From positions 1 to 44,800 of the forward strand of contig CALUQO010000020.1 of the NCBI GenBank assembly GCA_944322935.1: a DNA stretch of 44,800 bases, in the 5' to 3' direction. The stretch comes from Candidatus Gastranaerophilales bacterium. Its GTDB lineage: Bacteria; Cyanobacteriota; Vampirovibrionia; Gastranaerophilales; Gastranaerophilaceae. The stretch's first letter is position 1, and every line of letters starts with the position of its first letter. The position numbers were made by a program, and so were the translations under genes. Below are positions 1 through 44,800 of this stretch, in pieces. The notes below the pieces were generated by a model. The model was not told where the DNA came from. It searched no databases and saw only the letters and a list, made by a program, of their open reading frames with translations.

Positions 1-425
1 TCGAAAATTCGGGGTTCTTTCCTCTCAAAAAATATGACATTTAGTCATATTTTTTTCGGCAGAGTCTCCGGGCCCAAATTTAAAAGACTTCCTTCGGGAA
101 GTTTTTTTTTCATGGGATTCGAACCGCAAATTTTCTTCGAAAATTCTGGGTTCTTTCCTCTCAAAAAATATGACATTTAGTCATATTTTTTTCGGCAGAG
201 TCTCCGGGCCCAATTATTAAAAGACTTCCTTCGGGAAGTTTTTTTTTCATGGGATTCGAACCGCAAATTTTCTTCGAAAATTCGGGGTTCTTTCCTCTCA
301 AAAAATATGACATTTAGTCATATTTTTTTCGGCAGAGTCTCCGGGCCCAATTATTAAAAGACTTCCTTCGGGAAGTTTTTTTTTTCATGGGATTCGAACC
401 GCAAATTTTCTTCGAAAATTCGGGG
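1..425. repeat. Three tandem ~137-bp structured repeats plus the start of a fourth
   Basis: Units begin at 1, 137 and 274 and a truncated fourth begins at 412. They are nearly identical apart from single substitutions and changes in A/T run length. Each plus-strand unit contains a 12-bp hairpin (first copy arms 27-38 and 44-55, loop ATTTA), the block GAGTCTCC (62-69), a six-bp hairpin with a TTCG tetraloop followed by a T run (87-110), a tRNA-T-arm-like string GGGATTCGAACC (114-125) and a 7-bp hairpin with a TTC triloop (129-145). No open frame is convincing. The array lies just downstream of the TpsB gene, which reads towards it. The T-arm-like string suggests degenerate tRNA 3' ends, but the T stem does not pair, so no functional tRNA is called. 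Confidence 0.85.
359..385. terminator. Intrinsic terminator stem in the third repeat unit (also at 87-110 and 224-247)
   Basis: ACTTCC and GGAAGT pair around a TTCG tetraloop, with an A-rich left flank and a run of about ten T on the right. The flanks allow termination in both directions. This copy is the first that transcripts of the minus-strand TpsB gene would meet. The same stem occurs once in each of the three repeat units, giving three terminators in series. Confidence 0.6.
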
Positions 426-483
426 TGAATTTTTACAAAATTGTCTTTAAAAAGTAAAACCCGCTGTTCTGACCGAAAATTGA

Positions 484-5700: not shown

Positions 5701-8700
5701 GCAAAGGTACAAGCATAAAGGCAAAAAATCTTGATGTTATTGCAGGAAGTGCATCCATAGCTACAGCAACAAGAGCTAAAGACCAATTGATTTCTGATCC
5801 GTTTGCTGATAGAGATGATGTATTAATAACGGATGACATCGATTTGTCTACGCCTCAGGTACGTCAGTTCCTTGATTTGAATGAAGATACAGGTTTGATT
5901 AGCGTTGATGCTCCATCAACAATAACTGACGGCGTTTCCAATATAACAATAACAGGTGCTCTTGCAAACCAAACAGGACAAGTTACAGTACCATCTGAGG
6001 GTGGCAATACAGGTACCTCTTCTCAAAATAATCCGCAAAGTTCAAGCGGTGTTGCGGTAGGTGCATCAGTTGTTGTGTCTGATATATCCCGTGGGGTTCA
6101 AGCTTATATTGCTGATAATACAACTATTGAACTAACAGAAAGTTTAAATGTTAAAGCCGATACTTTAAACCAAGAGTTAAATATTGCAATTGCGGGTGCA
6201 TTTGCCGGCGGTGTCAAACTTAAGAAAGAGAAAAAAGATACAGATAAAAATAATGTTGCAGCTAATTCGGCCACAGGTAAAACAAATTTACTTAACTCTT
6301 GGCAGGACAAAACTGATAATGCAGCAACAAAAGCTGATAATTTATTAGCAAATGCTAATACTTCAAAATCTTCATCTGCAAAACTTGATAAAAACGGAAA
6401 CCCGATAATAAATGTTGAAGGCAAAGAATATACTACTAATGATAAAGGTCAATATTGCGACAAAGACGGTAATGTTTTAAAAGATAAAAACGGCAATGAA
6501 GTTAAATATGACGGCTCAACAGGTAAAGAAGCCTCTAACCTTGACAATTTGGATTCGGAAAAAGGGCATTCCAAAAATATGTCAGCTGCTGCAGCCGGTT
6601 CTGTAAATGTCCAATTTAATAATACGGAAGTAAAAGCAGAAATTGGTAATGCTGATATAAAAGTCGGTAATGATGTTAACGTAGAAGCTAATCAAGCAAC
6701 AAAAGTTCTTAATGTTGGCGGCGGTGTTGCAAAAGCAGCAACAGTCGGAGCCGGAGCCGCTGTTAATTTAATTGAAAATACAAACCAAACAACTGCTTCG
6801 CTAAAAGGCAGCCAAATTACTTATACAGGCACATCTGATAACAAGCTCAATGTTAAAGCAGAGGAAAATAATGATAATATACAGGTGGCTATAGGTGTTG
6901 GTGTTTCAAAAGCAAGTCAGGATGATGCAACAACGCAGGTCTCCGCAGGCGGGTCTTTCAACACGGATATACTCGAAAATAAAGTTGTTTCACAGATTGA
7001 CGGTGCAACTGTAAAACATCAGAATAAATCAAATAATATTGCTGTTAATATTGATGCAGAAAACCACTCAACCTCGTATAAAGGTGCCGGAGGTCTTTCA
7101 GTTAATACAAGCAGCAGCGGAACAGGAACAGGTGGTTCTTCTGGCTCGACTGGTTCAACAAAGGCTCAGTCAGGTAATACTTCTGTCGGTGCCGGCATGG
7201 GTGGAAATTTAAACCTTATAACGAAAGAAACCAATGCTAAAATAACAAATTCAAACATTCAAAATGCCAAATCTGTTGAGGTTGTGGCAAATAAGGATAA
7301 AACACAAAAGACAGAAGATTTAATATCCGTAGGTGTAGGCGGTACCGTTATAACAGGTGCTCAAAGCGGATATTCTTTCTCCGGTGCAATGGCTACCGAT
7401 GTAATCAATAATACAATTAATGCCAACATTGACAATTCAACCATCGCTGCGGCGAATAATGTTAACGTTGCAGCAAACAATAATTTCTCTAACGGAAATA
7501 TTGCAGGTGCTTTGGGGTTTTCAACGGCTTCCAAGGGCGTCGGTGTCGGTGTTGGAGCTATTGTAAGCGTTATTAACAACGACATAAATGCTTCCGTTAC
7601 AAATAATTCAAACATAACCGGCGGTGACGTTAACGTTAACGCATACAATAACGAGAATTTAAAATTCCTTGCGGCTAATATGGGAATACAAACAGGAAAC
7701 GGAATACCTGTTACCGCAAACGGTATTGTTAATGTAATTCAAAATAATATTGCAGCCTCTGTTCTTGATTCTTCTATTACAAATAGCGGTTCTTTAGATA
7801 TTATTTCAGACTACGACAATTCAATCGAATGCATTACTGTTGCTGCCTCAATAGCTGCAGGAAGCGGACTCGCTGCAGGTGCTAACGTATTGTCCAACAC
7901 GTTATTGAGCAGCAATACTGCTCAATTAATAAACTCTGACACGACTTCAAGTGGAAAATTGACAGTAAAAGCCACTACAGACGGAAATATTGATACCATT
8001 CCTGCTGCTGCAGCAATTAGCTCATCCGGAAGTCTTGCAGCTGCTGCAAATGTCGGGGTTAATGTGGTACAAAATTCCACAACTGCAAAAATTGACGCTG
8101 AAAACGGCAAAAAATCCAATGTATCCGCAAACGGTGTTGAAGTAGCAGCTTCTGATAACACCCAATCAAGAAGCAGAGGCGGAGTGCTTGCTGCTTCCGG
8201 CGGAACTGCAGCTGTCGGCGGTTCTATACTTACTGATGTTTATTTAAAAAACGTTGACGCACATATAGATAATGCAACAATAACAAAAGGCGGAGATATA
8301 AAAGTTGATGCTTCTGCTAAAAATATTTTTGGGGAAGAAACGCCCGGCTCAATTACAGCTGCCGCTCTGGCAGAAAAGTTGTCCAATCCTGATTATGATA
8401 TGAAAAAAGATACTGATTACCAGAACTGGGATATGACCTTTGATGTCGCCGGTGCAAGCACAGCAGGCGTTTCCGGATCTTTGATATCTAAAAATGTTAT
8501 AAATGATGTGGATGCTTATATTGGTTCTAACGTTGCAATTCAAGAGGCAGGAAACATTGACGTTCTTGCTTCTAACAAAACAGTTGCTGATGTAATTGTT
8601 GGCAGTATCACTGCCGGCGGTACCGCAGCAGTTGGCGGTTCTATATTTTCTAATGTAAATGTAAGCACGGTTGATGCAGGTATCAAAAACGGTGCACAAG

Positions 8701-11700
8701 TCGGTTCTGACTCTTCAAGAGTTGGTTATGTTAATGTTAATGCAAACTCCGAACAGATTTATAAATCAATGATGGCTATAGTTGGCGGCGCAGGTGCCGC
8801 TGCAGTTAAAGGTTCCATCAATTCCAATATAATTGTAAACGAAACAAATGCATATGTAGGAAACGGCGTAAATATATTTGCTGACAGATTAAATGTTGCT
8901 GCCGCTGATTCTATGGATACTGAAGCATTAAATGTTGCAGTATCTGCAGCCGGTTCTGCAGCTGTTGGCGGGGCTATTTTTACAAATGTACTTGCTAATA
9001 AAGTAAATTCAATTGTCGGTAAAAACGGCACTGACGGACAAAAAGCCGGAAATATTAATACAACCGGTGACGTGAAAGTTTCTGCGAATGATGATCAGAA
9101 CTTCCAAGCTAATGTGATTGTTACCTCTGCAGCAGGTGCGGCGGGTGTAGGCGCAGTAGCTGTAGCCAATATTATGGCATCGGAAGTGAATGCCGGTATT
9201 GAAAACACAACTGTAACCTCAAATGATAGTGTAACAATAACAGCAAACAACAGTTTTAACGGGGCTCATAAAGATCAAAATACAGGACTGCAGTCACTAA
9301 TAAACAAAGGTTCTGTTTCTTCTGACGATATATCAAAACTTATTCCTCTGGTAGGTGTTATAACTATAGGTGCAGCAGGTAGTGCAGGTGTTAGTGCTAC
9401 GCTCATTGCAAATTCTGTAACTACTGCTGTTAATGCATATGTCGATAATTCAACAATATCAACACTTAAAGGCTTAAATGTTGATGCCGATTCTTCAATG
9501 ACAACTTATGATGCAGCGTTAAGCGTTGCTGCTGCAGGTGTTGCCGGAGTCGGTGTGAACGGAGTAACAAATATTTATTCTGGCACTACTATCGCATCTG
9601 TAACTGATTCGACAGTCAATGGTTCTCTAAATGTTACGGCTGATGATGCTTTTAATTTAAATACAATTATATTTACAACCGCTGCGTCTGGTACTGCAGC
9701 TGTTACGGCTATTACAAACGTAAATACTATTTCAAATGAAGTAACTGCAAAAGTTGAAAATACTGATATTAATGATGCGCAAACAGTTAAGGTTACAGCT
9801 AAAAATACAGTTACAGCAACAGATGTTCTTGCTGCAGGTGCGGTAGCAGGAACAGGTGCCGGTGTCAGCCTTGCTCCTATTGTGAATGTGTTTACTAACA
9901 GCACAAACGCTTATATTCAAGGCGGTTCTGTTGATAATGCACAAACTACAGTAGATGCACAATCGGATATTAATGTTATCTCTGCTATTTTAGGTGTATC
10001 AGGCAGCGGCGTGGGAGCTAGTGTTTCCGGATTTGCAGGAGTAAATGTTTTTGATAACGAATTGAATTCTTATATCTCTGACGTAAGCTTTACAAATGCA
10101 CAATCAACCTCGGTTTCTTCAACAGCTAACCTTAATTTGGATGGCATTATTGGAGCAATCGGGATAAACGGTGTAGGTGCGTCAGTACTTGTAAACGGTA
10201 TAGTAAACGTTATCAAAAATAATGTAAATGCATATATTGCGAATTCATCAATCTCAGGGGGAAGTGTGTCCGTATCGGCAATACAAAACTCTGATATTGA
10301 CAACACAACCGCTTCAATTGCAGCAAATGGTGTGGGGGCCGCAGTTTCTGCCAATACACTTGTGTCTGTTTTGACCAATAATTTGAATGCAAATATAACA
10401 AAGACGTCGACTGATGTTGATTCATTAACGGTTAATGCAAATAACAAACAGGATATTTCAAATAATAATATTGGTATTGGTGCTTCGGGCACAGATGCTG
10501 CAGGTGTGAATACAACTGTTAATGTTCTTGAAAATACCGCAAAAGCATACATTGATGCCGAAGACAATACAATGAATGTCTCTGGAAATGTAAGCGTTGC
10601 CGCTAAAGACGAAATATTAATGCAAAATAACCTGGGACTTGTCAGTGGTTCCGGCATTGGGGCTGTCGGTGCAAATGTTAACGTAAACGTAATTAACAAT
10701 GCTGTTTTAGCTCAATTGTTAAGCACTTCGCAAGGTCAAATTAATGCCAACAGCGTAGAGGTTAATTCAAACTCAATTATTGGTCTTGACGAAGGCGGTA
10801 TTACAGCGGCTGCGGCAGGATTTGGCGCAATTGCAGGTACAGTCTTTGTTAATTCAATCGGAGGAAAGGTATCCGACTATTCAACGAATGCTAACCTTAA
10901 AGATGCGGGAATAGACGAATCAATCACACAGGCAAACAATAATTTTAACAGTATTGTAGAAGGTATAACCTATGAAAAAGACGGTCAAAATCAGACTTTA
11001 GCCGGATCATATAATCTTACATCAGGTGAAGCCAAAGCCGGAACACAGGCTGAAATTAACGCCAACGTGACAACAACCGGTGCTGACGGAGTTAAAGTAA
11101 GTGCCCAAAACACGTTAAAAGGCTATGATTCCGATACAATGAGCATTACTAACGCAACTGCAGCCGGCGGAACAGGTGCTGCGGCAGTAGGCGTGCTTGT
11201 TACGGATATGAAATACAACACCTCGGCTTCCATATCGGGCGGAAATGTCGTTGCCCAAAATAACGGCGATGTTACTGTAAAAGCAGATTCCAATGTTAAA
11301 GCAAATACCGATGCTGTTGCAACAACATTAACAGCTCTTGTTGGTGTTGCAGGCAGCGTTGCATATTTTGATAACAAAGCAAACACCACTGCTCAAATTA
11401 TAAATGCCAATGTCAATTCTGCCAATGACATAAACGTGCTGGCAGAGTCATCGGACAGTATTGTTTCCAAAGCAATTTCCGCAAGCGTCGGCGGTGTAAG
11501 TGTTAACCTTAATATTGCGGTTGCAAATACGGAAAATACAATACAATCTTTAATTTCAGGCAACAATGTCGATATTGATGCTGACAACTTAAACGTGAAA
11601 GCAACAAATACAAGCAGACTTGAATCCGAGTTGTACGGTGCAAGTATAGCCGGAGTTGATGTTTCCGTTGTCGTAAACACAGCCGTATCAAAGGCTGTTT

Positions 11701-14700
11701 CGGATGCTTTGATTTCACTTAACAACAACTCAACAGTTGACGTGTTAAATGATTTAAACATCATCTCTCAAACCGGAGGAATCAACACAATAAACAACGT
11801 TGTTGTTGGTTCAGTCGGTGTGTATTCTGCAGATGGCAACTACCAGAAGGCGGAATCAAACGCAACGTTTAACTCGGGAATTGCCGGTGGAAAAATTAAT
11901 GCAAACAACGTAAAAATCAATGCAGGTACAGCAAAGGATTCCGATGAAGGCGGAAACATAACAGCAACAGTTAACACAAAAGAGGCAACCGGTGCTCTTT
12001 ATTCTTTTGGTACAACCGTTGTTGACGCAAGAGCTAACGGTAACGCAAACGCACAGATTACAGGTGGAAACGTTACGGCAAAAAATAAAATCGATATAAA
12101 ATCAAAGCTTAACAGAACAGCAAAAACAGATTCAGAAAGCTTTTCCATAAGTGGCTTGGAAATAAATGCTCTCGTTGTATCAAATTCAACCGGCGGTGAC
12201 ACAAATATCAACACAAACGGCTCAACATTGACAGCTTATAACGTTGATATGCTTGCCTCAAGTACAAATAGAACCTCTGCTTCTATGGTAAGCGGTAAGG
12301 TCTCTCTCATCGGCGGTGATGGTACCGTGGTTGAGGCTATTTCAGGCGGCAATGCAAAAATCGAGACAGGCAACATAAATGCTGATAATACAAATTTAAA
12401 AGTTGATATAAAAAGAAATGCAACGATTACAAAGAACGAAAAGGCAGCATCTCTTGTAGGTTTGAAAGTAACTGATTTAAAAGCTAAAACAACAGGCACT
12501 TCTGGCATAAATACACACGGTATAATACAAAATAAAGCCGCAAACGGACAGGCACAAAAAGTTGTTATTAACACTGTAGACAATTCGGTTGCGCAAAACG
12601 AATCTGCCGAAACAAGCATAGGTTTTATTGAAGGATCTGTATTGAATATAGAAACAACATCTGATTCTTTAATATCTAATGTTATAGGCGGTACAATCAA
12701 GACGCAAACTCTTGATATCGATTCTACGCTTAACAGAACAGCTGTATCAAATGCTGCGTCAAAAGATGCAGGGCTAGCCAATATCGGTGTAATGAACTTA
12801 ACAAGCCAGATAGGCAATGCTAATACAACAACAATCTCAGCAGCAATCGAGGCAGAAAACGTTGATGTCGATTCCACAATGACAAGCACAGTGGAATCCT
12901 ATGTACATGACTTTTCAGCAGGTCTTGTGGCACTTGCTCACGGCGCAACCAGAAACAAAGTTAACGATACATCAAAAAATATTGTTAATTTTAACGGTAC
13001 TATCAATGCAGATTTACTCGATGCTGATATAAACACTCTGTCTAATGCATATCTGTTTAAAGAAAGCGGTAATTACGGATTGTTTGTGGTCAAAGGCGGC
13101 GAGTTGTCAAATACACTTAAAGCAACTTCCGAATTAAACTTAAATAACGCCAAAATTAATACAAAAGGCGACGCTCTGTTCACTGTTGTGAATAACGCCC
13201 ATACACCAAGCGAAATGCAGGTTACTGATGATGCCGGCGGGTTTGTTGTATCAGGTGGTGCAAAACTTTCCAACACGCTTAATATCGGTGCCGGTATCAA
13301 TGTTAACGGCAATACCGAAATCAATGCCGGTAACAAACTCGAACTGGATATAACCAGCGGTACAACAGGCTTTAAGCAGAAAGTTACCTCTGACGGAAGC
13401 GGCTTTACCGCAAATAATAACGCAAGTTCTATTGTAACAGCAGTAGTTAATAATAATATAAACATAAACGACGGTTTGCTCAGCGGCAAATACGTTGATA
13501 TCAATATGAACTCATCTAACGAGCTGAGTTCTATTGCTGAAGTTGACACACACCACTTTGCCGGCAATCCGTCTGTTAATAGCGAAGTTAACCTTACAAT
13601 CAACAACACTTTGAACGTTGCCGGCGAATTGTTTGCTCAATCCGAAACAGCAGGTGTTAATGATGATACCAGCGTCAACATTAATTTTATGGGTAATTCA
13701 AAACAAGACCTAAACCAGCTTGCTGATTTGTATGTAGAAGCTGCAATTGCTACCGGTGATGCGGATGGTGGTATTAACTTCACTACAAATAATAATGTGA
13801 ATGTTAAAAATAATGGGGTAATAAGCTCTCAAAAAGATATTAACGTTGTGTTTGACAGAGGGGAAGAAAAACTTTCTTCAAAAATTGTTTACGACAGAGT
13901 AAGCAGACTCCTTTTTGGGATAAAAATACATGATGACGGCAGTTATACTTCCGTAAAAAATGAATCCTCAAATAACGTAAAAGTTGACGGAAAACTTATT
14001 GCCGGCAAGAACAACTCTATGCATCTTACAATCGATAAAGACGGCAATGCAACCGGTACAATACAGGACAACTTATACGAGAAACAAGACAGCACTCTTA
14101 TTGAGGCCGGTAAAGATTCTCAGGCAGCGAAAGATGAAATCGCCAAAATTGAACAGGCGCTTAGCGAGTTAAATTCGGAAAAAGAACGCCTGGAAAATAT
14201 TAACGAAACAAATACTGCTAATTACGAATCTCTGCTTGAGCAAATCGATGCGCTTAAATTGCAGCTTGCAATGGCAGAGTATATTCAGGGCGTTGCTGAT
14301 TCCGGAAAAATTTCGCAAAACGATTTTAAAAACAGTATCGTTACAATGCTTGAAAACAACAATGTTGCAAATGCAGAAACAGTAGCTAATCAGCTTTTGG
14401 ATTACTACACAATGGCTGCGGATGATAAAACTAATCTGCCTATCTACAGCTTCAATACATCTGACGGAAATAATATTATTCTGAAATATGCTGTGGATGA
14501 AAACGGTAGCTATATTATAGAAAATGGACACTACAAGTTGGCCGATCTTGAAGGCTATACGATAAATTATGAAAACAATATTCCCGTGAGTGTTACACCT
14601 GATAACTCAGCTTCCGTAATAAGCGTTGGAACACTTACATTTGATGATTATTTAGCAGGGCTTGGTATCGGTGAAGATGCTCTAAACTCTATAAAAACTT

Positions 14701-17700
14701 CATTAGACGGTATGAAAATTGATTCTCAAACCGCTACTATAACGACTGATTCAGGCACCAAAACAGTAACATTCCTTACAACAGGCGGAAAAATTATATA
14801 TGACAGTCAATATGTCGATAATATGCAGTCTGTTTCTTCTGAAATTACGGCGGCTGAAAATAGTGCTAATACATTAAATGAAACAATTTCATCAATCGCC
14901 GATGATTTGAACGATATAAAAAATCAAATAAAAGAAAACGAGGCAAGAAAAGACAACATTGCCCAGAACGGACTCGGAGAATTCAAAGCTGAGAACGGTT
15001 CTTACATATTTAAAGATATCAACGCAACAAGCGGTACGATTAATATTCAAGCCAACAAAGGCAAGAGTGAAGTTTCCGGCACGGGTGAAATTATTATGAG
15101 TCTTGCCGATGTGTTGATTAACAACTACTCAAACTACAACCTGATATTCAGCGATATCACTGTTGCCGGCGGTGTGGGCAGCTTTGTTGTGGATGGAAAA
15201 ACCGTAACGGATAATCCGTATAATGGAATCACAATCAGTACAATAGGTTCGGCTGATAATAAAGGCGGTATTACTATTAATAACTGGTATGATCCAAACG
15301 ATCCTGATAATAATACTGCTCTTGGCGTTCTTTCCAGCAATATGATATTTAACGGCATTATCAATACGGGTGTCGGCAATGTGAATATCTACAACGAAAG
15401 CGGCGATGTCACAATTAACAACGATGTTACCTCTAATAAATTAACTGTCAATGTTGCTCAGGGCAGCTTTACACAGGATACAAAGGGTAAAGAATACGTG
15501 CTTAACTCAGGTGATACACTGTTTGCCGGTAAAAACATAAATATTATCGCTTCAAAAATTAAAGTTGAAGGCAATATGCAGACAGGCATAGCCGACAAAA
15601 ATATAACAATTACACAGGATATGCTTGAACATGCCGTTAAAGAAACTGTAAAACAGGTAGTTACTGATGCATCCGGAAACCCAATTAAAGATGCAAACGG
15701 CAATGTTCAGTATAAAGAAGTTGAAACAGGCAGACTGCTTGTAAATCTTGCACTTGGCAGGGACGGCTCAGAAGGTTCCAAGCAGTCTGACTATATGTAT
15801 AATACAAATAACATCAAGGCACTTTATGATCCGAAAACAAATACTGTTGAACTCTTCGGCGTAAAAGTTACTGATGAGGCTAACATTAACCTTACAGCGA
15901 CAAGCTCTGACGCTGATGCGGTATATGTTTCAGATAAATCGTCAATAAAATATGCAAACGGGTACGGTGAGATAAATATCGATAACCAAACCAATGCGCA
16001 CCTTGTTGTTAACGGACTTGAAAATAACAAGATTGCAGGTGCCGTAACGGTTAACGGCAGTACAAATCTTCCTGAGTTTTCAACAGTTCAGGTTGAAGAA
16101 ACAAGATACGGCTTGCATCAAATAGATGGATTCCCGTTCTTTGCATATGGAGAATATACCGTAACAGTTGAAAAACAGGCGGGTTTTGGTGCTAAACCTC
16201 AAAATACTGCTGATACAACACTGACAAACGGAAAGACTACAGTTGATACCTCGAAAAATTCAACAACAGGCGACCTTATCGTTAACGGACTTATTTCTTC
16301 CGGTAACTTAACCGAAGATGAAGCCGGTCTGCTGTTACAGACTAACGGAAATCTCGTTATTAATAACAGAACGGCTTCGGAGGATTCCAATTATCAGGTA
16401 CCGACTATTGATACAAAAGGCGATATTGTACTTAACAAACTTACTGACAACGGCGGCGTATTAATTCAAGGTCTGATACAAAATTCAGGCAACACAACTG
16501 TAAATAATGCAGGAGCAGACGGTATTACGCTGGCTGCTATGGGCTTTATTGATAATGAAAACGGAAAAGTAAACATAAATAATAACAACGGAAATATACA
16601 AATTTCAGGCAAAATCAACAATACTACAGAAAACGATTTTGCGGGCGAAAAAGACGTTGTTATTACCAATAATTCTGACGCAGGCGGTATAATTACAGAT
16701 GCGGACAGTGAAATTAAAAATCACAACGGCAAAGTTACCGTTACAAACAATGGCGCTCTTGGAATTAATGCACAGGGTAATATCCTAGCAACAAAAGGTG
16801 ATATCAATATTACCAACAAAAAAGGAGATATGTTGCTTGGCGAGGATTCTTTAATAAGCCTTAACGACGGTTATACAAACCAATTAAACAACATAAACAT
16901 CTTAAATTCCGAAACATCAGCCTCTATGACTATTGCCGGTGCTGTTAACAACTACGGAAACGGCAATATTGATATACATAACAAGGGTACGGGTGCCGCA
17001 ACAATTGCGCAAACAGCTGTTGTTTCAAACAATATCGGCAATATAATTGTCACAAATGAAAACAGCAAACTCACAATTGCAGGTAAAACGCAAAACCAAA
17101 ACGGTGATACCCAAATTACCAATAACGGTGAGGAAGGTGCACTGATTTCTGGTAAGATTTTAAATACCGGTAATGCAGGAACAGTCACAATAGATAATAC
17201 CAAAGGTAACGTAACTATTTCAGGTGCTGTGTCTAACGTTTCTCAAACTAATGAAGACAATCTTGTTATCACAAATGATGGTGACGGTGGGGCGTTGATA
17301 TCCGGAACTGTTAGCAATCTGCTTGGTAATACGATTGTTGATAACACAGCTGGAGCTTTTGAACTATCCGGAAATATGACAAATTCTCAAGGTAATACGA
17401 AAATTACAAACAGCGGTGACGGTGGTGCGATAATTTCTCAGTCTGGAGTTGTTTCAAATAATGCCGGAGATATCTTAATTACAAACAACAATAATAAACT
17501 TACAATAGCTGGCACAACAGAAAACCAAAACGGTAACACCCAAATTACCAATAACGGTGAGAATGGTGCATTGATTTCCGGTACTGTTTCAAATACCGGC
17601 AATGCGGGCAAACTTACTATAGATAACACCGTAGGCGGTATTACAATAACAAATACGGGCAGTGTTACAAATACTTCCAATACAAATGAAGACAATCTTC

Positions 17701-20315
17701 TTGTCCAAAATAGTGGTGACGGCGGAATCAGTATTGCCGGTAAAGTTGTTAATACAAATCAAGGTAACCTGAAGGTTGTAAATAACAATGCAAATTCCTC
17801 AGCGATAACCACCGCCGCAGGCTCATTGATTCAAAACACAAACGGCGTTTTGAATATAACCAACGAAGGCGCAAACGGTATCTCCGTTGCGGGTACTGTT
17901 AACAACATTAAAGGTGCATCAAATATTGTTAACAACAATACATCTGACACCTCTGCAATAAAAATTGCTACAACTGGACGTGTTACAAACAACGACGGTA
18001 CAATCACCATCAAAAACTTCGGCACAAAAGATGTCGGTCTTGATATTGAAGGTATTGTCAACGCAATAAAACAAAATATAGAAATTATCAATGAAAATTC
18101 CGACATTGAAATCGGCGAATATGACAGCTCTAATGATTTCTACGTAAACGCTCAAAACGGAAATATCATAATCAGCCAGACAAACGGCGATATCTTAAAC
18201 GGAATAGTTGATACCGATACTGAAAATAAAAATCAAAATCACGATTTGGGCAATAAGGACAAAGCCTATAAAACTCTGCTTTCAACAAGCGGAAACTTAA
18301 CAATGAACGTAGAGGGTGGTAATATCGGCTCTGATACCCACGCTCTTGACGGCAAAGAATCAGGCTTTGGTATCAACGCATCAACCCGTGATTACACGGA
18401 GTCAATAAACGTTAATGTTGCAGGTGTTGTCAACGCAAATGCTTCAAACAACGGCAATGCGCTTATCAATCTGCGTGCCAAAGATTCCAACCTTAATGTA
18501 AACAACATAACTTCTGACGGAAACGTTATGCTTACGGCTGTTGATTGGAAACAGGCTGATATGGTACCGGCTCCGTCTGATGAAAGCTATTATCACGGAT
18601 ATTCCGTAGTAAACAGTGCAACAGATAAGTCCAAAGCTAATGTTACTGGCAGAAACATTTCCGTGATTTCAAGCGATAACATAGGTACAAACGGAAACTC
18701 CTTCACCTATAATCAGCTTGAAGGCGGCTCAATAAGCGCTATGGCAGAAAATGACCTTTACATTAAAGGTATGGGATTAAATGATAATATCTGGCAGCTT
18801 ATTACAAAACGCGGCAACATGGGGCTTGAATTTAACGGCGATGCCGTAATAAGAGAGCTCACTGCCGGTAAAGACCTTAAGATTGTTTCTAAAGGTGCTA
18901 ACCTGACTATATATGACCTTGGCAAAACAACAAACCTTGAGGATAACGATGATATACTCTTCCCTCACGACGGTATTTTGATGTCATCTGTTTCACCTGA
19001 AACGCTTGATATAAGAGTGCTGGATGTAAACCCTGATACAAGAGTAAACCAAAATGCTGCAAATTCTACTCTTAATATCTATAACGCTTATGTAAAAGGT
19101 CAAAGCAACGGAACACCGGATGTGACGCTGCGTGCAGATAATATTATTGCTCACGCTTATGATGCAGCAAGTTCTCCTGTCGGCAATGCGTCAAGACCAA
19201 GCGGCTTTGATGCCACTGAGGGCAGATTATATGCAAACGATTACACCGATTCTGATGCAGAGAAAAACCTTAAAGCAACCGGCTTTAATACGGTAGGCAG
19301 CGGAAGCAAACTGGTATTTGATATACAGGGCGTTTCTCCTGACGATGTCGTTAACGCAGGAGCACAGCAGGGTGACAGAAACTATAAACCGCAAGAAGTA
19401 GTTGAAACCTGGGAAATCTTTAACAACCCGATAGGTTTTAAAGATACGGTATACAAAGCAAAAGATGTTACTCTGTCTTTAAATTCCGCTTCGACTTCAC
19501 CTACAGACAACAGAGGTATGGAAATTTCTAAAATCTATACAGATAACGCATATGTGGATACAAAAGATTTGAATATGCATATCAGTGATGCATATGTTAC
19601 TAATTACGGTGAATTCAGAAACGGTAACAGAGGCGGAGCCGGCGGCGGCCACTACATCAGCGATGATTACAGATGGCTGACTATTGTGGATAACGATTAT
19701 TTCAGAAACATCACAAACCTTTACGATATTCCTGTAACGTCGCAGCTGTATACAAAACTGACGGGCTCTTTCGGTTTGAATATGGGGAATGTGATTGCGC
19801 TTGAGACCAAAGCACCGGTTGTTCATTACAACCCGTATGAGGTAATTCTGCTTCCGAGAACGGAAAACAGTTTTTATCGCTTAACCTATAAAGATGATAA
19901 AATACAAAAAACTACGACAACGCCGGATTTTGCGGATATCGATAAATCTACTTACAAACCTACAAAACGTGATTCCATCAGATTTACTGTTAAGCAAGGT
20001 GACGGATACGTAAATATTTCCGATAAAAAGAAGAAAAAAGAGAAAACACCTCGTATTATTGCAATTGAAAACATCTCAAGAGGCGGTTTGGCTGTAGTTC
20101 ATGACGGCTCGTTAAGAAAAGGCGAACGCTTTGTAATTGATATAGATTACCACAACATCAAAGCATCGCCCGAGGTAGAGGTCGTCCGTGTTGTGAACGA
20201 CAAAGCCGGCTTGAAATTCATTAATCTTGACAAAGCCACTGCAAACAAAATTCTTTATATGAACATGTTTATGGCTGATAATGAAGAAACATCACCTCAA
20301 ATGTCACAGAGATAA
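2733..20315 (+). CDS. Giant TpsA-type filamentous exoprotein (LktA-like) with C-terminal PilZ domain
   Basis: This 5860-residue protein is probably exported by Sec and then by the neighbouring TpsB. A signal peptide covers about 1-33 (AIA/TE). The TPS/haemagglutination domain follows, with SPQGM at 121-125 in the place of the family's NPNGI-type motif. Most of the rest is Asn/Ala/Gly/Thr/Val-rich beta-helix repeat. Between about 8.2 and 10.8 kb the repeats recur every 53-60 residues, with a GxAAVGGS-like turn and an NAxI strand. A charged, Asp/Asn/Lys-rich insert lies at about 1195-1290. Two coiled-coil segments lie at about 3798-3855 and 4035-4080. A second repeat type (GDGGALISG-like) fills about 4550-5110. 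Near the C-terminus are RDSIR (5746-5750), a Lys-rich linker and NISRGG (5780-5785), the RxxxR and NxSxxG motifs of c-di-GMP-binding PilZ domains. I saw only two cysteines (1242, 1700). No autotransporter barrel is present. AGGGA precedes the ATG. The substrate of adhesion is unknown. Confidence 0.9.
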   Translation: MFLKFNLSVKKLVAFVLTSLFFMQQTMILPAIATEITGVQAGADGQYNILPDFVHGDTGFRHYDNFNLSKGDIANLIFALQNGQIDVNKFVNLVDSRIIINGVLNGVLRNGDIGGHAIFVSPQGMVIGASGVLNVGALTTIAPTQNVYDTMKNKYTPNFQNHQTPADPVLNIVNDTYVKDDYSTAQRTDNEQVAFDLNTLKISDQEGNIDVNGKIIARDDVELVGKHIKVQKDPNNPNADKAGILAGVNNNAETNSNMKVNAKLETTEAAGKLFNALVNNDVQNGAGFENQNGKIVIKAQSIKQITNEDVPSNVTEVEDSSLIASLFPKPSDDFVNPDSFENNSSSVLIQDAILKAHDIDVSATTKVEYNAKKGAPSLNYITNPDATTLSQLLTNGYVNWEGARAKATVTIGSGAELIASGDVLLNSLAIATSNIKVKPLKITKKVQIADIAEMYYAVGTQTESSVHVQDGAKIEAGENFVANATSKNTLWAKIKNTTTWLDQAILPNWQVVVLNSTTDADTSAVIDSGATVKAKNVDVQAVNVTNDFVNIAAKTTMYKSDSLPSFSAGVIVRNADIDTEAKVNGNINAAEDVNVNAQNLHVASLSSTASVAEDKGSKLPLPGNLGKAQKAVEQIQQKISGLLGTFIADVAPNASGSVVVNTVNNSASATIGNKADITANKVNVNANIVDLSVNSSTAKTGDDKTASYVPAPGVAVIVNEQNNAAHAQIEDSDGTNSAKIKAKNGLNVSATTEQPMNEATFEFLLSLAQLGNDLVDGSGNIVDGVSSFDINTNTPWDFSGLTTLFTNESGEILADIKDIRLGLKQSGATSHLGLKGFTNNWAQSTSKVKDGGVGLAGSFVYSEVVNDTVARIGNGTQITDTGNVIVNAANKIVQNNAAGDLSKLWKISGSSGESSGVGGSGIVTYVTNNAKAQIGENVIIDSTGDVKLNSASLQSYINTAITGSSTQNGLAFSGSTVVQEINGTTESSVGKGTSIKAKNLDVIAGSASIATATRAKDQLISDPFADRDDVLITDDIDLSTPQVRQFLDLNEDTGLISVDAPSTITDGVSNITITGALANQTGQVTVPSEGGNTGTSSQNNPQSSSGVAVGASVVVSDISRGVQAYIADNTTIELTESLNVKADTLNQELNIAIAGAFAGGVKLKKEKKDTDKNNVAANSATGKTNLLNSWQDKTDNAATKADNLLANANTSKSSSAKLDKNGNPIINVEGKEYTTNDKGQYCDKDGNVLKDKNGNEVKYDGSTGKEASNLDNLDSEKGHSKNMSAAAAGSVNVQFNNTEVKAEIGNADIKVGNDVNVEANQATKVLNVGGGVAKAATVGAGAAVNLIENTNQTTASLKGSQITYTGTSDNKLNVKAEENNDNIQVAIGVGVSKASQDDATTQVSAGGSFNTDILENKVVSQIDGATVKHQNKSNNIAVNIDAENHSTSYKGAGGLSVNTSSSGTGTGGSSGSTGSTKAQSGNTSVGAGMGGNLNLITKETNAKITNSNIQNAKSVEVVANKDKTQKTEDLISVGVGGTVITGAQSGYSFSGAMATDVINNTINANIDNSTIAAANNVNVAANNNFSNGNIAGALGFSTASKGVGVGVGAIVSVINNDINASVTNNSNITGGDVNVNAYNNENLKFLAANMGIQTGNGIPVTANGIVNVIQNNIAASVLDSSITNSGSLDIISDYDNSIECITVAASIAAGSGLAAGANVLSNTLLSSNTAQLINSDTTSSGKLTVKATTDGNIDTIPAAAAISSSGSLAAAANVGVNVVQNSTTAKIDAENGKKSNVSANGVEVAASDNTQSRSRGGVLAASGGTAAVGGSILTDVYLKNVDAHIDNATITKGGDIKVDASAKNIFGEETPGSITAAALAEKLSNPDYDMKKDTDYQNWDMTFDVAGASTAGVSGSLISKNVINDVDAYIGSNVAIQEAGNIDVLASNKTVADVIVGSITAGGTAAVGGSIFSNVNVSTVDAGIKNGAQVGSDSSRVGYVNVNANSEQIYKSMMAIVGGAGAAAVKGSINSNIIVNETNAYVGNGVNIFADRLNVAAADSMDTEALNVAVSAAGSAAVGGAIFTNVLANKVNSIVGKNGTDGQKAGNINTTGDVKVSANDDQNFQANVIVTSAAGAAGVGAVAVANIMASEVNAGIENTTVTSNDSVTITANNSFNGAHKDQNTGLQSLINKGSVSSDDISKLIPLVGVITIGAAGSAGVSATLIANSVTTAVNAYVDNSTISTLKGLNVDADSSMTTYDAALSVAAAGVAGVGVNGVTNIYSGTTIASVTDSTVNGSLNVTADDAFNLNTIIFTTAASGTAAVTAITNVNTISNEVTAKVENTDINDAQTVKVTAKNTVTATDVLAAGAVAGTGAGVSLAPIVNVFTNSTNAYIQGGSVDNAQTTVDAQSDINVISAILGVSGSGVGASVSGFAGVNVFDNELNSYISDVSFTNAQSTSVSSTANLNLDGIIGAIGINGVGASVLVNGIVNVIKNNVNAYIANSSISGGSVSVSAIQNSDIDNTTASIAANGVGAAVSANTLVSVLTNNLNANITKTSTDVDSLTVNANNKQDISNNNIGIGASGTDAAGVNTTVNVLENTAKAYIDAEDNTMNVSGNVSVAAKDEILMQNNLGLVSGSGIGAVGANVNVNVINNAVLAQLLSTSQGQINANSVEVNSNSIIGLDEGGITAAAAGFGAIAGTVFVNSIGGKVSDYSTNANLKDAGIDESITQANNNFNSIVEGITYEKDGQNQTLAGSYNLTSGEAKAGTQAEINANVTTTGADGVKVSAQNTLKGYDSDTMSITNATAAGGTGAAAVGVLVTDMKYNTSASISGGNVVAQNNGDVTVKADSNVKANTDAVATTLTALVGVAGSVAYFDNKANTTAQIINANVNSANDINVLAESSDSIVSKAISASVGGVSVNLNIAVANTENTIQSLISGNNVDIDADNLNVKATNTSRLESELYGASIAGVDVSVVVNTAVSKAVSDALISLNNNSTVDVLNDLNIISQTGGINTINNVVVGSVGVYSADGNYQKAESNATFNSGIAGGKINANNVKINAGTAKDSDEGGNITATVNTKEATGALYSFGTTVVDARANGNANAQITGGNVTAKNKIDIKSKLNRTAKTDSESFSISGLEINALVVSNSTGGDTNINTNGSTLTAYNVDMLASSTNRTSASMVSGKVSLIGGDGTVVEAISGGNAKIETGNINADNTNLKVDIKRNATITKNEKAASLVGLKVTDLKAKTTGTSGINTHGIIQNKAANGQAQKVVINTVDNSVAQNESAETSIGFIEGSVLNIETTSDSLISNVIGGTIKTQTLDIDSTLNRTAVSNAASKDAGLANIGVMNLTSQIGNANTTTISAAIEAENVDVDSTMTSTVESYVHDFSAGLVALAHGATRNKVNDTSKNIVNFNGTINADLLDADINTLSNAYLFKESGNYGLFVVKGGELSNTLKATSELNLNNAKINTKGDALFTVVNNAHTPSEMQVTDDAGGFVVSGGAKLSNTLNIGAGINVNGNTEINAGNKLELDITSGTTGFKQKVTSDGSGFTANNNASSIVTAVVNNNININDGLLSGKYVDINMNSSNELSSIAEVDTHHFAGNPSVNSEVNLTINNTLNVAGELFAQSETAGVNDDTSVNINFMGNSKQDLNQLADLYVEAAIATGDADGGINFTTNNNVNVKNNGVISSQKDINVVFDRGEEKLSSKIVYDRVSRLLFGIKIHDDGSYTSVKNESSNNVKVDGKLIAGKNNSMHLTIDKDGNATGTIQDNLYEKQDSTLIEAGKDSQAAKDEIAKIEQALSELNSEKERLENINETNTANYESLLEQIDALKLQLAMAEYIQGVADSGKISQNDFKNSIVTMLENNNVANAETVANQLLDYYTMAADDKTNLPIYSFNTSDGNNIILKYAVDENGSYIIENGHYKLADLEGYTINYENNIPVSVTPDNSASVISVGTLTFDDYLAGLGIGEDALNSIKTSLDGMKIDSQTATITTDSGTKTVTFLTTGGKIIYDSQYVDNMQSVSSEITAAENSANTLNETISSIADDLNDIKNQIKENEARKDNIAQNGLGEFKAENGSYIFKDINATSGTINIQANKGKSEVSGTGEIIMSLADVLINNYSNYNLIFSDITVAGGVGSFVVDGKTVTDNPYNGITISTIGSADNKGGITINNWYDPNDPDNNTALGVLSSNMIFNGIINTGVGNVNIYNESGDVTINNDVTSNKLTVNVAQGSFTQDTKGKEYVLNSGDTLFAGKNINIIASKIKVEGNMQTGIADKNITITQDMLEHAVKETVKQVVTDASGNPIKDANGNVQYKEVETGRLLVNLALGRDGSEGSKQSDYMYNTNNIKALYDPKTNTVELFGVKVTDEANINLTATSSDADAVYVSDKSSIKYANGYGEINIDNQTNAHLVVNGLENNKIAGAVTVNGSTNLPEFSTVQVEETRYGLHQIDGFPFFAYGEYTVTVEKQAGFGAKPQNTADTTLTNGKTTVDTSKNSTTGDLIVNGLISSGNLTEDEAGLLLQTNGNLVINNRTASEDSNYQVPTIDTKGDIVLNKLTDNGGVLIQGLIQNSGNTTVNNAGADGITLAAMGFIDNENGKVNINNNNGNIQISGKINNTTENDFAGEKDVVITNNSDAGGIITDADSEIKNHNGKVTVTNNGALGINAQGNILATKGDINITNKKGDMLLGEDSLISLNDGYTNQLNNINILNSETSASMTIAGAVNNYGNGNIDIHNKGTGAATIAQTAVVSNNIGNIIVTNENSKLTIAGKTQNQNGDTQITNNGEEGALISGKILNTGNAGTVTIDNTKGNVTISGAVSNVSQTNEDNLVITNDGDGGALISGTVSNLLGNTIVDNTAGAFELSGNMTNSQGNTKITNSGDGGAIISQSGVVSNNAGDILITNNNNKLTIAGTTENQNGNTQITNNGENGALISGTVSNTGNAGKLTIDNTVGGITITNTGSVTNTSNTNEDNLLVQNSGDGGISIAGKVVNTNQGNLKVVNNNANSSAITTAAGSLIQNTNGVLNITNEGANGISVAGTVNNIKGASNIVNNNTSDTSAIKIATTGRVTNNDGTITIKNFGTKDVGLDIEGIVNAIKQNIEIINENSDIEIGEYDSSNDFYVNAQNGNIIISQTNGDILNGIVDTDTENKNQNHDLGNKDKAYKTLLSTSGNLTMNVEGGNIGSDTHALDGKESGFGINASTRDYTESINVNVAGVVNANASNNGNALINLRAKDSNLNVNNITSDGNVMLTAVDWKQADMVPAPSDESYYHGYSVVNSATDKSKANVTGRNISVISSDNIGTNGNSFTYNQLEGGSISAMAENDLYIKGMGLNDNIWQLITKRGNMGLEFNGDAVIRELTAGKDLKIVSKGANLTIYDLGKTTNLEDNDDILFPHDGILMSSVSPETLDIRVLDVNPDTRVNQNAANSTLNIYNAYVKGQSNGTPDVTLRADNIIAHAYDAASSPVGNASRPSGFDATEGRLYANDYTDSDAEKNLKATGFNTVGSGSKLVFDIQGVSPDDVVNAGAQQGDRNYKPQEVVETWEIFNNPIGFKDTVYKAKDVTLSLNSASTSPTDNRGMEISKIYTDNAYVDTKDLNMHISDAYVTNYGEFRNGNRGGAGGGHYISDDYRWLTIVDNDYFRNITNLYDIPVTSQLYTKLTGSFGLNMGNVIALETKAPVVHYNPYEVILLPRTENSFYRLTYKDDKIQKTTTTPDFADIDKSTYKPTKRDSIRFTVKQGDGYVNISDKKKKKEKTPRIIAIENISRGGLAVVHDGSLRKGERFVIDIDYHNIKASPEVEVVRVVNDKAGLKFINLDKATANKILYMNMFMADNEETSPQMSQR
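17010..17630 (+). repeat. Direct repeat of ~190 bp inside the exoprotein gene, offset 429 bp
   Basis: The stretch at about 17010-17200 recurs at about 17440-17630. The best-conserved part, around CCCAAATTACCAATAACGGT, is identical in both. The offset of 429 bp is exactly 143 codons, so the reading frame is kept. It encodes beta-helix coils of the GALISG type and looks like a comparatively recent internal duplication or gene conversion. Confidence 0.7.
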
Positions 20316-42373: not shown

Positions 42374-42763
42374 CTAGAAAGAATCTCCAACAATATGGTC
42401 TTTAGTGTCAATGTATTCGGAAACAACTTTTAATAGTTTCAACAGACGTTCTTTGTCGTGTATATGAAGATAGCCTATCAAAACTTCAAAACCCGTAGCA
42501 ATACGATGAAGAGCCTGATTGGTCTTTCTCTTTGATGTCGTAGGCAGATTTCTTCCGCGTCTTACAAGGTCAGCTTCGTGCTCACTAAGGTACGGTTCAA
42601 GAACATTTAACAGCTGACACTGAAACGAAGCCCGGACAAGCATAGTGTTAATTTTGTGCATGCGAGCCATATTAGATGTAAGATAAATTATTTTTTCCCT
42701 GATAAAAAGTTCATAAACAGCGTCGCCTAAGTGTGCATAACATTTTAAATTTAATTCTTCCAT
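42374..42763 (-). CDS. mrnC: Mini-ribonuclease 3 (MrnC)
   Basis: MrnC is an RNase III catalytic domain without a dsRNA-binding domain that matures 23S rRNA ends in Firmicutes and cyanobacteria. The 129-residue protein has the family motif AHLGDAVYEL with catalytic D14, the middle signature RRGRNLPTTSKRKT, and FEVLIGYL with E93. Length is typical. AGGA precedes the ATG. Convergent with the membrane protein gene, with almost no gap and no clear terminator. Its presence agrees with a cyanobacterial affinity. Confidence 0.9.
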   Translation of the reverse strand: MEELNLKCYAHLGDAVYELFIREKIIYLTSNMARMHKINTMLVRASFQCQLLNVLEPYLSEHEADLVRRGRNLPTTSKRKTNQALHRIATGFEVLIGYLHIHDKERLLKLLKVVSEYIDTKDHIVGDSF

Positions 42764-43572: not shown

Positions 43573-43610
43573 TTCCGGCATTTTTCGCTTTCTTTGATAT
43601 TTTTTCTTTT

Positions 43611-43685
43611 CTTAGATACTTTTCTTTCTTTGTGTTGCGCAGGCAAAGAAAGAAAAGTATCACAAAAGAAAGAATACCGGCGCTA
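43611..43685 (+). repeat. Long-hairpin element, copy A
   Basis: An 18-bp perfect stem (43615-43632 with 43644-43661, GATACTTTTC…GAAAAGTATC) encloses an 11-nt loop TGTTGCGCAGG. The flanks CACAAAAGAAAGAATACCGGCGC are shared, inverted, with copy B. Confidence 0.8.
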
Positions 43686-43934
43686 TTCAAAAGAGCTTTT
43701 AAAACTCAGAAACGAAAATTTCCGTCCACTCTCAAAATACAAAATTCGGTACGGTAAATTTTCATTCCTTCGTTTAAAAATCTCTAACTGTATTCCATCA
43801 GGGCTACGCCCCGAACCCCCTACGGCTCACATCGTGAGCCGTTGTAATCAGCGTATTTCTATTCAAACGAAAACGCACCTTAAAAACCGACCTTTGTAAG
43901 GACTCCACAAGCACTATTGAGTATCGTGCGTAGT

Positions 43935-44011
43935 GGAGACTCTGCCAAATAAAAGCAACTAAATGTTGCTTTTATGAGAGAGGCAAGCCAGATACGAAGT
44001 ATCTGCGTGCC
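43935..44011 (+). repeat. Two-hairpin structured element with conserved loops
   Basis: GGAGACTCTGCC is followed by an 11-bp hairpin (43949-43959 with 43965-43975, loop TAAAT), GAGAGAGG, then a 7-bp GAA-triloop hairpin (43989-43995 with 43999-44005) inside a GGCA/TGCC outer stem. The minus strand of each repeat at 1-425 has the same order, the same loops and the same single-stranded blocks, while the stems differ and still pair. The meaning is unknown: a structured RNA, a recombination site or a mobile repeat are all possible. Confidence 0.65.
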
Positions 44012-44222
44012 GTATAAAAATTAAAAAGAAATGAACATAAAAAATAAAGACATAAATTTTTTTTGGGTTTTAATCAACCTTTTTTACCGCGTAAGCGGTG
44101 TTAGCGGCTTTGCCGCTGGAATGCGGCTAAACACTGTTAGTTTTTAGAGTAAATTTTGACAGACCGCAACGTAGTGAAGTGGATGCAAAATTTATTCTAA
44201 AAATTTACAGTGTTTTTTGATT

Positions 44223-44310
44223 AGCGCCGGTGTTCTTTCTTTTGCGATACTTTTCTTTCTTTGCCTGCGCAATACAAAGAAAGAAAAGTATCTAAAAAAA
44301 ATAAAACGTA
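44223..44310 (-). repeat. Long-hairpin element, copy B (inverted relative to A)
   Basis: The same 18-bp stem (44246-44263 with 44275-44292) has loop CCTGCGCAATA, the reverse complement of the copy A loop except for one base. The left flank GCGCCGGTGTTCTTTCTTTT is the inverted right flank of A with one change. A partial copy lies near 20437-20470. Confidence 0.8.
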
Positions 44311-44368: not shown

Positions 44369-44800
44369 CTACTCCCTGCCGACTTTCCAGCGTAAGCCGA
44401 CTGTGAGAGAGACGCCGTTTCTGCCTCCGTTGTGTATCATTGCCTGACCAAAAGCAAGGAATTTATCCTTGAATCGTTTTTGGACACCTACGCCGTATTG
44501 TACGTATGGTCTTATGCTCATTTCGGGTAATCTCACATCATTGGCTGTGACTCTGCTGTCATCAAGAAGGTTCCAGACCATGTTTACTCCTATGTATGGC
44601 TGCCAGCCGTTCTTTGTATTACCGATGAGTTTTAACCCGGGGGAAAGTTGGATTGCATGGAGTGGGTCACTTTCTATTCTTACACCTGCTGCGTTGTTGT
44701 AGTCAAATGTATTTACAAAGGTATAACTTATGAGGAAGTTGGGCTGCAGAATCATTTTTCCGTCCCAGAATTCGAAGTTATAGCCTGTTTTGTTACCTAT
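44369..44800 (-). CDS. C-terminal part of an autotransporter-type outer-membrane barrel protein (cut by window edge)
   Basis: The frame is open to the right window edge, so 143 codons of the C-terminus are visible and the start lies outside. The alternating-strand sequence (LISYTFVNTFDY, WQPYIGVNMVWN, IRPYVQYGVGVQKRF, GVSLTVGLRWKVG) is typical of the last strands of an autotransporter beta-domain, and the closing GLRWKVGRE keeps the family's aromatic ending two to three residues inside the C-terminus. It should form the outer-membrane pore for a passenger encoded further upstream. A GGCAGAC palindrome lies just past its stop. The identity of the passenger cannot be seen. Confidence 0.75.
   Translation of the reverse strand: MGNKTGYNFEFWDGKMILQPNFLISYTFVNTFDYNNAAGVRIESDPLHAIQLSPGLKLIGNTKNGWQPYIGVNMVWNLLDDSRVTANDVRLPEMSIRPYVQYGVGVQKRFKDKFLAFGQAMIHNGGRNGVSLTVGLRWKVGRE

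What the first reader, a model, noticed from the sequence alone, without database searches (positions are those of the whole stretch)
43935..44011. Two-hairpin element with compensatory stem changes shared with the left array
The minus strand of the array units and this site share, in order, GGAGACTCTGCC, hairpin 1 with loop TAAAT, GAGAGG, and hairpin 2 with loop GAA followed by TGCG. The stems differ in sequence (AAATATGAC versus AAAAGCAAC; AATTTTC versus AGATAC) yet remain fully paired. This is covariation, expected for a selected RNA or DNA fold. It may be a previously undescribed structured RNA, a recombination site or a non-autonomous mobile element.
Basis: seen in the sequence. Interest (0 to 1): 0.7.

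Follow-up and report, generated by a model that had tools for sequence, protein, structure and literature searches.

The report
Mobile DNA hairpin at tRNA ends
The gut bacterium's genome carries dozens of copies of a tiny (about 46-base) DNA hairpin that keeps its folded shape while its letters change, and about half of the copies sit at the ends of tRNA genes next to a duplicated piece of that tRNA; it appears to be a new family of miniature mobile DNA.

Summary
Site and array share ACTCTGCC[GA]A – hairpin – GAGAG[GA]. Across 42 distinct gap-free copies, 9 of 12 stem pairs show double-sided changes (covariation score 0.485 vs 0.137±0.015 shuffled, 0/500). Only hairpin 1 is the shared unit; the second hairpin differs by site and often carries local target sequence.

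The genome belongs to a Gastranaerophilales MAG. A covariance model finds 68 copies in it. Among 244 genomes of the phylum it hits 99 of the sampled GTDB family, one genome of another family in the order, and none outside the order. No Rfam family matches.

About half the copies lie at tRNA/tmRNA ends, right after a copy of that tRNA's 5' or 3' end and pointing into the gene, often as 1–3 (up to 4) units of 90–240 bp. The window's left array continues from tRNA-Met at the end of contig C7. Empty sites exist in relatives; in genome G136 one host repeat occurs with and without the 45-base insert.

Best reading: a REPIN-like, non-autonomous mobile hairpin without REP's GTAG tag. The mobilising enzyme is not shown; a Y1 (RAYT) transposase is my weakly supported favourite. 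IS110 is absent. I file it as a new variant of short palindromic mobile repeats.

The parts
43939..43983 (+). Core mobile hairpin (ACTCTGCC-AA-11 bp stem, loop TAAAT-GAGAG-A-G)
   Evidence: Covariance model hit 43940-43983, E 5e-6; sequence; DNA fold z -6.0
43898..43938 (+). Second hairpin module (AAGGACTCC...GGAG, type B) directly 5' of the core; the same module type sits alone in a partial tRNA-Thr copy in relatives
43982..44011 (+).
21..65 (-). Core hairpin, array unit 1 (12 bp stem, loop TAAAT)
   Evidence: CM hit 21-64, E 7e-11
157..201 (-). Core hairpin, array unit 2
   Evidence: CM hit 157-200, E 7e-11
294..338 (-). Core hairpin, array unit 3
   Evidence: CM hit 294-337, E 7e-11
66..76 (+). 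Copy of the tRNA-Met 3' end CTCCGGGCCCA (repeated in the next two units)
   Evidence: identical to the 3' end of tRNA-Met at the end of contig C7 (match G000:C7:65552-65587)
82..110 (+). Terminator-like hairpin AAAAGACTTCCTTCGGGAAGTTTTTTTTT of the unit
114..150 (+).
1..426 (-). Tandem array of 3.1 units of 137 bp; continuation of the 3' side of tRNA-Met, whose gene lies at the end of contig C7
   Evidence: L246 runs into the same unit sequence at the contig end

Best explanation
A miniature, non-autonomous mobile DNA element of about 46 bases: fixed ends 5'-ACTCTGCCGA ... GAGAGG(TA)-3' around a hairpin of 8-13 bp that is recognised by shape, so its letters drift but stay paired. Copies inserted into host repeats and, above all, into the ends of tRNA and tmRNA genes, where the insertion comes with a duplicate of the tRNA end, so the real tRNA stays whole; the duplicated end then allows tandem growth and loss of units. 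Shown: covarying fold, copy number, empty and filled sites, the same 45-base insert in unrelated contexts, tRNA-end copies and one polarity. Inferred: that the folded single strand is the transposition substrate, and that a Y1 (HUH) transposase such as the resident RAYT cuts it (weakest step, about 0.3-0.35).
For: Covariation 0.485 vs 0.137±0.015, 104 double-changed cells vs 29±5; both arms have equal length in nearly all copies (12/12, 11/11, 10/10, 13/13). 68 copies in the own genome, 99 family genomes, 0 outside the order. Same genome G136: empty GAAGCGAATTTGC-GGAC-GGACGACACGCAG in 3 copies, filled GAAGCGAATTTGC-[45 bases]-GGACGACACGCAG in 9; the identical core also in two copies of the unrelated repeat GTCATTCTGAG..GAAGAATCT. 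tRNA-Met 3' side: genomes with empty and filled sites share the same kind of native flank, and the filled unit is bounded by an 11-bp repeat of the tRNA end. 94 of 226 distinct sites (some gathered through tRNA searches; in a listing drawn almost wholly from core-pattern searches 49 of 103 sites lie near a tRNA) copy at least 6 nt of the near end of a neighbouring tRNA, 91 of 94 with the core pointing at it. The base before the insert is G or C in 95 of 97 non-redundant sites. For RAYT: three RAYT genes sit inside or against a core (chance about 5e-6), and genomes with a RAYT carry more cores (median 6 vs 3, P 4e-4, no correction for kinship).
Against: No excision or insertion was observed in real time. 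The RAYT's own repeats are GTAG-GTTGGGC..GCCCAAC hairpins, not this core, and genomes with many cores but no detected RAYT exist (G005, G013). Insertion appears to lose 4-6 target bases instead of leaving a clean join, which is not the textbook IS200/IS605 outcome. Filled sites in G136 may partly be copies of one composite repeat.
Confidence: 0.62

Rival explanations
1. A functional structured RNA tied to tRNA expression or processing: the hairpin in partial tRNA copies acts in pre-tRNA leaders or trailers, and structure is kept for that role.
For: Strong covariation with frequent G.A / A.G cells at stem pairs 2-3 and G.G at pair 7 recalls RNA motifs; units carry terminators; several genomes keep a core at the same tRNA-Pro/Gly locus.
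Against: At 5' ends the core is on the tRNA sense strand, at 3' ends on the antisense strand, so one RNA role cannot easily serve both; orthologous sites are empty in close relatives; many copies sit in unrelated intergenic repeats. No Rfam match.
Confidence: 0.15
2. Attachment-site debris of integrative elements: each unit is an att remnant left by a tyrosine integrase that recognises tRNA ends.
For: Direct repeats of the tRNA end of 11 bp or more flank units; the tRNA is restored; many different tRNAs and tmRNA are hit.
Against: Attachment arms are read as double-stranded sequence, not as a covarying hairpin; the same 45-base core also sits in non-tRNA repeats without tRNA homology; units hold no integrase gene.
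Confidence: 0.1
3. No enzyme: replication template switching at hairpins copies one hairpin tip into another, which explains tip exchange, 4-6 base losses and absence of target duplication at some sites.
For: Variable tips in the GTCATTCTGAG repeat; a RAYT element replaces the tip of a core hairpin.
Against: Target flanks do not form better outer stems than mismatched flanks (5.27 vs 5.06 bp); fixed ends and a G/C at the joint in 95 of 97 sites suggest a specific nuclease.
Confidence: 0.13

Closest known systems
REPINs / REP sequences with RAYT transposases (PMC3116915, PMC3733652, PMC6006769)
   Same: Short, high-copy, intergenic hairpins with conserved ends, a variable middle that keeps length and pairing (compensatory changes are reported for REPINs), tandem clusters; a RAYT (NF047646, similar to PDB 4er8) is present in many host genomes.
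   Different: No GTAG or CGTC tag at the hairpin foot; not the repeat that flanks the resident RAYT; strong preference for tRNA/tmRNA ends with partial tRNA duplication; apparent loss of 4-6 target bases.
IS200/IS605-type ends (Y1 HUH transposases)
   Same: Structure-recognised single-strand hairpins; no clear target duplication at the repeat sites.
   Different: No transposase inside; no fixed target tetranucleotide, only a G/C before the insert.
Rickettsia palindromic elements; mitochondrial double-hairpin elements
   Same: Tiny palindromic elements that spread through compact genomes (resemblance known from general knowledge, not tested).
   Different: Different ends and hosts; no partial tRNA duplications known to me there.
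Integrative elements that use tRNA genes as attachment sites
   Same: Restore the tRNA by carrying or duplicating its end.
   Different: Units of about 100 bp without genes; hairpin conserved by shape; also inserts elsewhere.

Membership tests
REP / REPIN (RAYT-associated) | 5' GT[AG]G (or CGTC) tag at the hairpin foot | tested here: not met
   Ends are ACTCTGCCGA and GAGAGG(TA); the tagged REP of this RAYT is a different repeat, GTAG-GTTGGGC
REP / REPIN (RAYT-associated) | Conserved ends around a variable hairpin with compensatory changes | tested here: met
   compare PMC3116915
REP / REPIN (RAYT-associated) | RAYT gene in the same genome, flanked by the repeat | tested here: inconclusive
   RAYT in 72 of 191 family genomes; the own genome has one, lying inside a core and next to another, but only a few other RAYTs do so
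IS110 with bridge RNA | DEDD transposase in the genome | tested here: not met
   0 matches in own genome, 3 of 26 relatives
Any Rfam RNA family | Match to a covariance model | tested here: not met
   Window at gathering threshold and 18 loci at permissive E-value: only tRNA and tmRNA reach threshold
Integron attC cassettes | R (GTTRRRY / RYYYAAC) boxes and an integron integrase | not tested
   No such boxes seen at the core ends by eye; no integrase search made
tRNA-targeting integrative element | Own integrase gene | tested here: not met
   Units of about 90-240 bp, too short for such a gene; no shared gene family adjacent to cores apart from ordinary host genes

The most novel reading that the evidence does not exclude
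A new transposition system: shape-recognised DNA hairpins that use tRNA and tmRNA gene ends as safe havens, moved by an unidentified nuclease that swaps 4-6 target bases for the hairpin and rebuilds the tRNA end, specific to the Gastranaerophilales.
Probability: 0.35. Interest if true: 0.8.

Novelty: new variant of a known kind. Interest (0 to 1): 0.62.

Why it matters
It shows a miniature mobile element whose folded shape, not its sequence, is kept, and which repeatedly uses tRNA gene ends without destroying the tRNA. It offers dozens of natural empty/filled site pairs in one bacterial family in which to work out how structure-recognised DNA moves and how partial tRNA arrays arise, and it explains repeats that break assemblies of these uncultured gut bacteria.

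Tried and rejected
(1) Rfam family: none. (2) IS110/bridge RNA, suggested by target-like sequence beside the core: transposase absent. (3) An autonomous partner next to the cores: ORFs within 2.5 kb of cores are ordinary host genes such as tuf. (4) The core as the RAYT's own REP: the RAYT is flanked by another, GTAG-tagged hairpin. (5) Insertion at the apex of hairpins in general: flanks pair no better than mismatched flanks. (6) Viral carriers: no match in viral contigs. (7) Published description under the host's name, or of bacterial palindromes in tRNA genes: none found. The three non-Gastranaerophilales records in the pattern scan (Altiarchaeales, Oscillatoriales, Chlorobiota) match only with long gaps and look like chance.

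Full report
Observation. The site at 43935-44011 and the minus strand of the array at 1-426 are as described. The 12-mer GGAGACTCTGCC occurs four times in the window without mismatch; allowing two mismatches there are five matches against 0.96 expected. Both places fold far better than shuffles as RNA and as DNA.

The family. Searching the window's own genome and relatives shows a large family: conserved ends ACTCTGCCGA and GAGAGG around a hairpin with loop TAAAT, TGAGT or TAAGT. Record titles identify the host group as Candidatus Gastranaerophilales. Both arms have equal length in nearly all of 108 distinct copies. On 42 distinct copies of equal length, which align without gaps, 88.7% of cells pair (70.2% shuffled), 104 cells have changes on both sides (29±5 shuffled), the covariation score is 0.485 (0.137±0.015), and slid registers collapse. 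The search pattern fixed CTCTGCC, the loop and GAGAGG, so conservation there is by construction; the stem was free. Shuffling does not correct for relatedness of the copies. Stem pairs 2-3 alternate between Watson-Crick pairs and G.A / A.G cells.

Distribution. The covariance model finds 68 copies at E 0.01 or better in the own genome and hits 99 genomes of the own family and one of another family of the order among 244 genomes of the phylum, none outside the order. No exact pattern match in IMG/VR.

tRNA ends. In a listing of 103 sites, drawn almost wholly from core-pattern searches, 49 lie within 500 nt of a tRNA or tmRNA. Of 30 top hits in the own genome about half do (counting the window array, whose tRNA-Met is on contig C7). 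In all loci held (some fetched through tRNA searches), 94 of 226 distinct sites have, directly before the core, at least 6 nt copied from the near end of the neighbouring tRNA; in 91 the core strand points into the tRNA, which is on the same strand when the core is at its 5' end and on the other when it is at its 3' end. Units of about 90-240 bp repeat 1-3 times, in one genome four, and the last is followed by the intact tRNA. In the window, the unit carries CTCCGGGCCCA, the tRNA-Met 3' end, a terminator-like hairpin and a T-arm mimic; the tRNA-Met gene at the end of contig C7 runs into the same unit, so the window array is its continuation.

Empty and filled sites. For tRNA-Met, G010 and G014 have the native 3' flank directly after the gene, while G009 and G006 have units between the gene and a matching flank, bounded by a repeat of CTCCGGGCCCA; whether the empty state is original or a loss is not settled. 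For tRNA-Thr, relatives are empty or filled with this core or with two other hairpin types; one of these is the module that lies directly 5' of the core at 43898-43938. In G136 a host repeat occurs empty three times and with a 45-base core, in place of four bases, nine times; the identical core also interrupts two copies of another repeat. The base before the insert is G or C in 95 of 97 non-redundant sites.

Enzyme. A RAYT (Y1 transposase; NF047646 and PDB 4er8 similarity) occurs in 72 of 191 family genomes. Its own flanking repeat is a GTAG-tagged GTTGGGC hairpin, but three RAYT genes lie inside or against a core, and genomes with a RAYT carry more cores (no correction for kinship). Genomes rich in cores without a detected RAYT exist. 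I therefore hold a Y1 enzyme as the best guess, not as shown. IS110 is ruled out in this genome.

Verdict. A REPIN-like miniature mobile hairpin without the REP tag, with a marked preference for tRNA gene ends: a new variant of a known kind, with an unresolved mechanism.

Noticed in passing
window 43601-43703 and 44204-44306: 103-nt inverted repeats (88% complementary, 500 nt apart) bracket the right-hand composite; their arms contain the genome-wide AAAGAAAGAAAAGTATC repeat.
   Followed up: no
window 2733-20315 (+): A single ORF of 5860 aa; no Pfam match in the first 2000 aa tested, a PilZ match near its end; next to an ShlB/FhaC-type transporter ORF at 484-2544 (-), as in two-partner secretion.
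   Followed up: partly
L206, L198, L207 (RAYT loci): RAYT elements lie inside a core hairpin (tip, base, 3' arm), one replacing the loop exactly.
   Followed up: partly
L231-L243 (tRNA-Thr 5' side in relatives): Two other hairpin types (AAGGACTCC..GGAG; AGGGACCCGC..GCGGG) occupy the same position in partial tRNA-Thr copies; copies end in the anticodon loop.
   Followed up: partly
T-arm arrays of G000, G001, G006, G012, G019: Within a genome, cores at different tRNAs often share the same stem variant while the same tRNA differs between genomes, as if stems were exchanged within genomes.
   Followed up: no
window 42374-42763 (-) and 44369-44755 (-): Genes flanking the site: a Ribonuclease III-domain protein and an autotransporter beta-domain fragment.
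   Followed up: no
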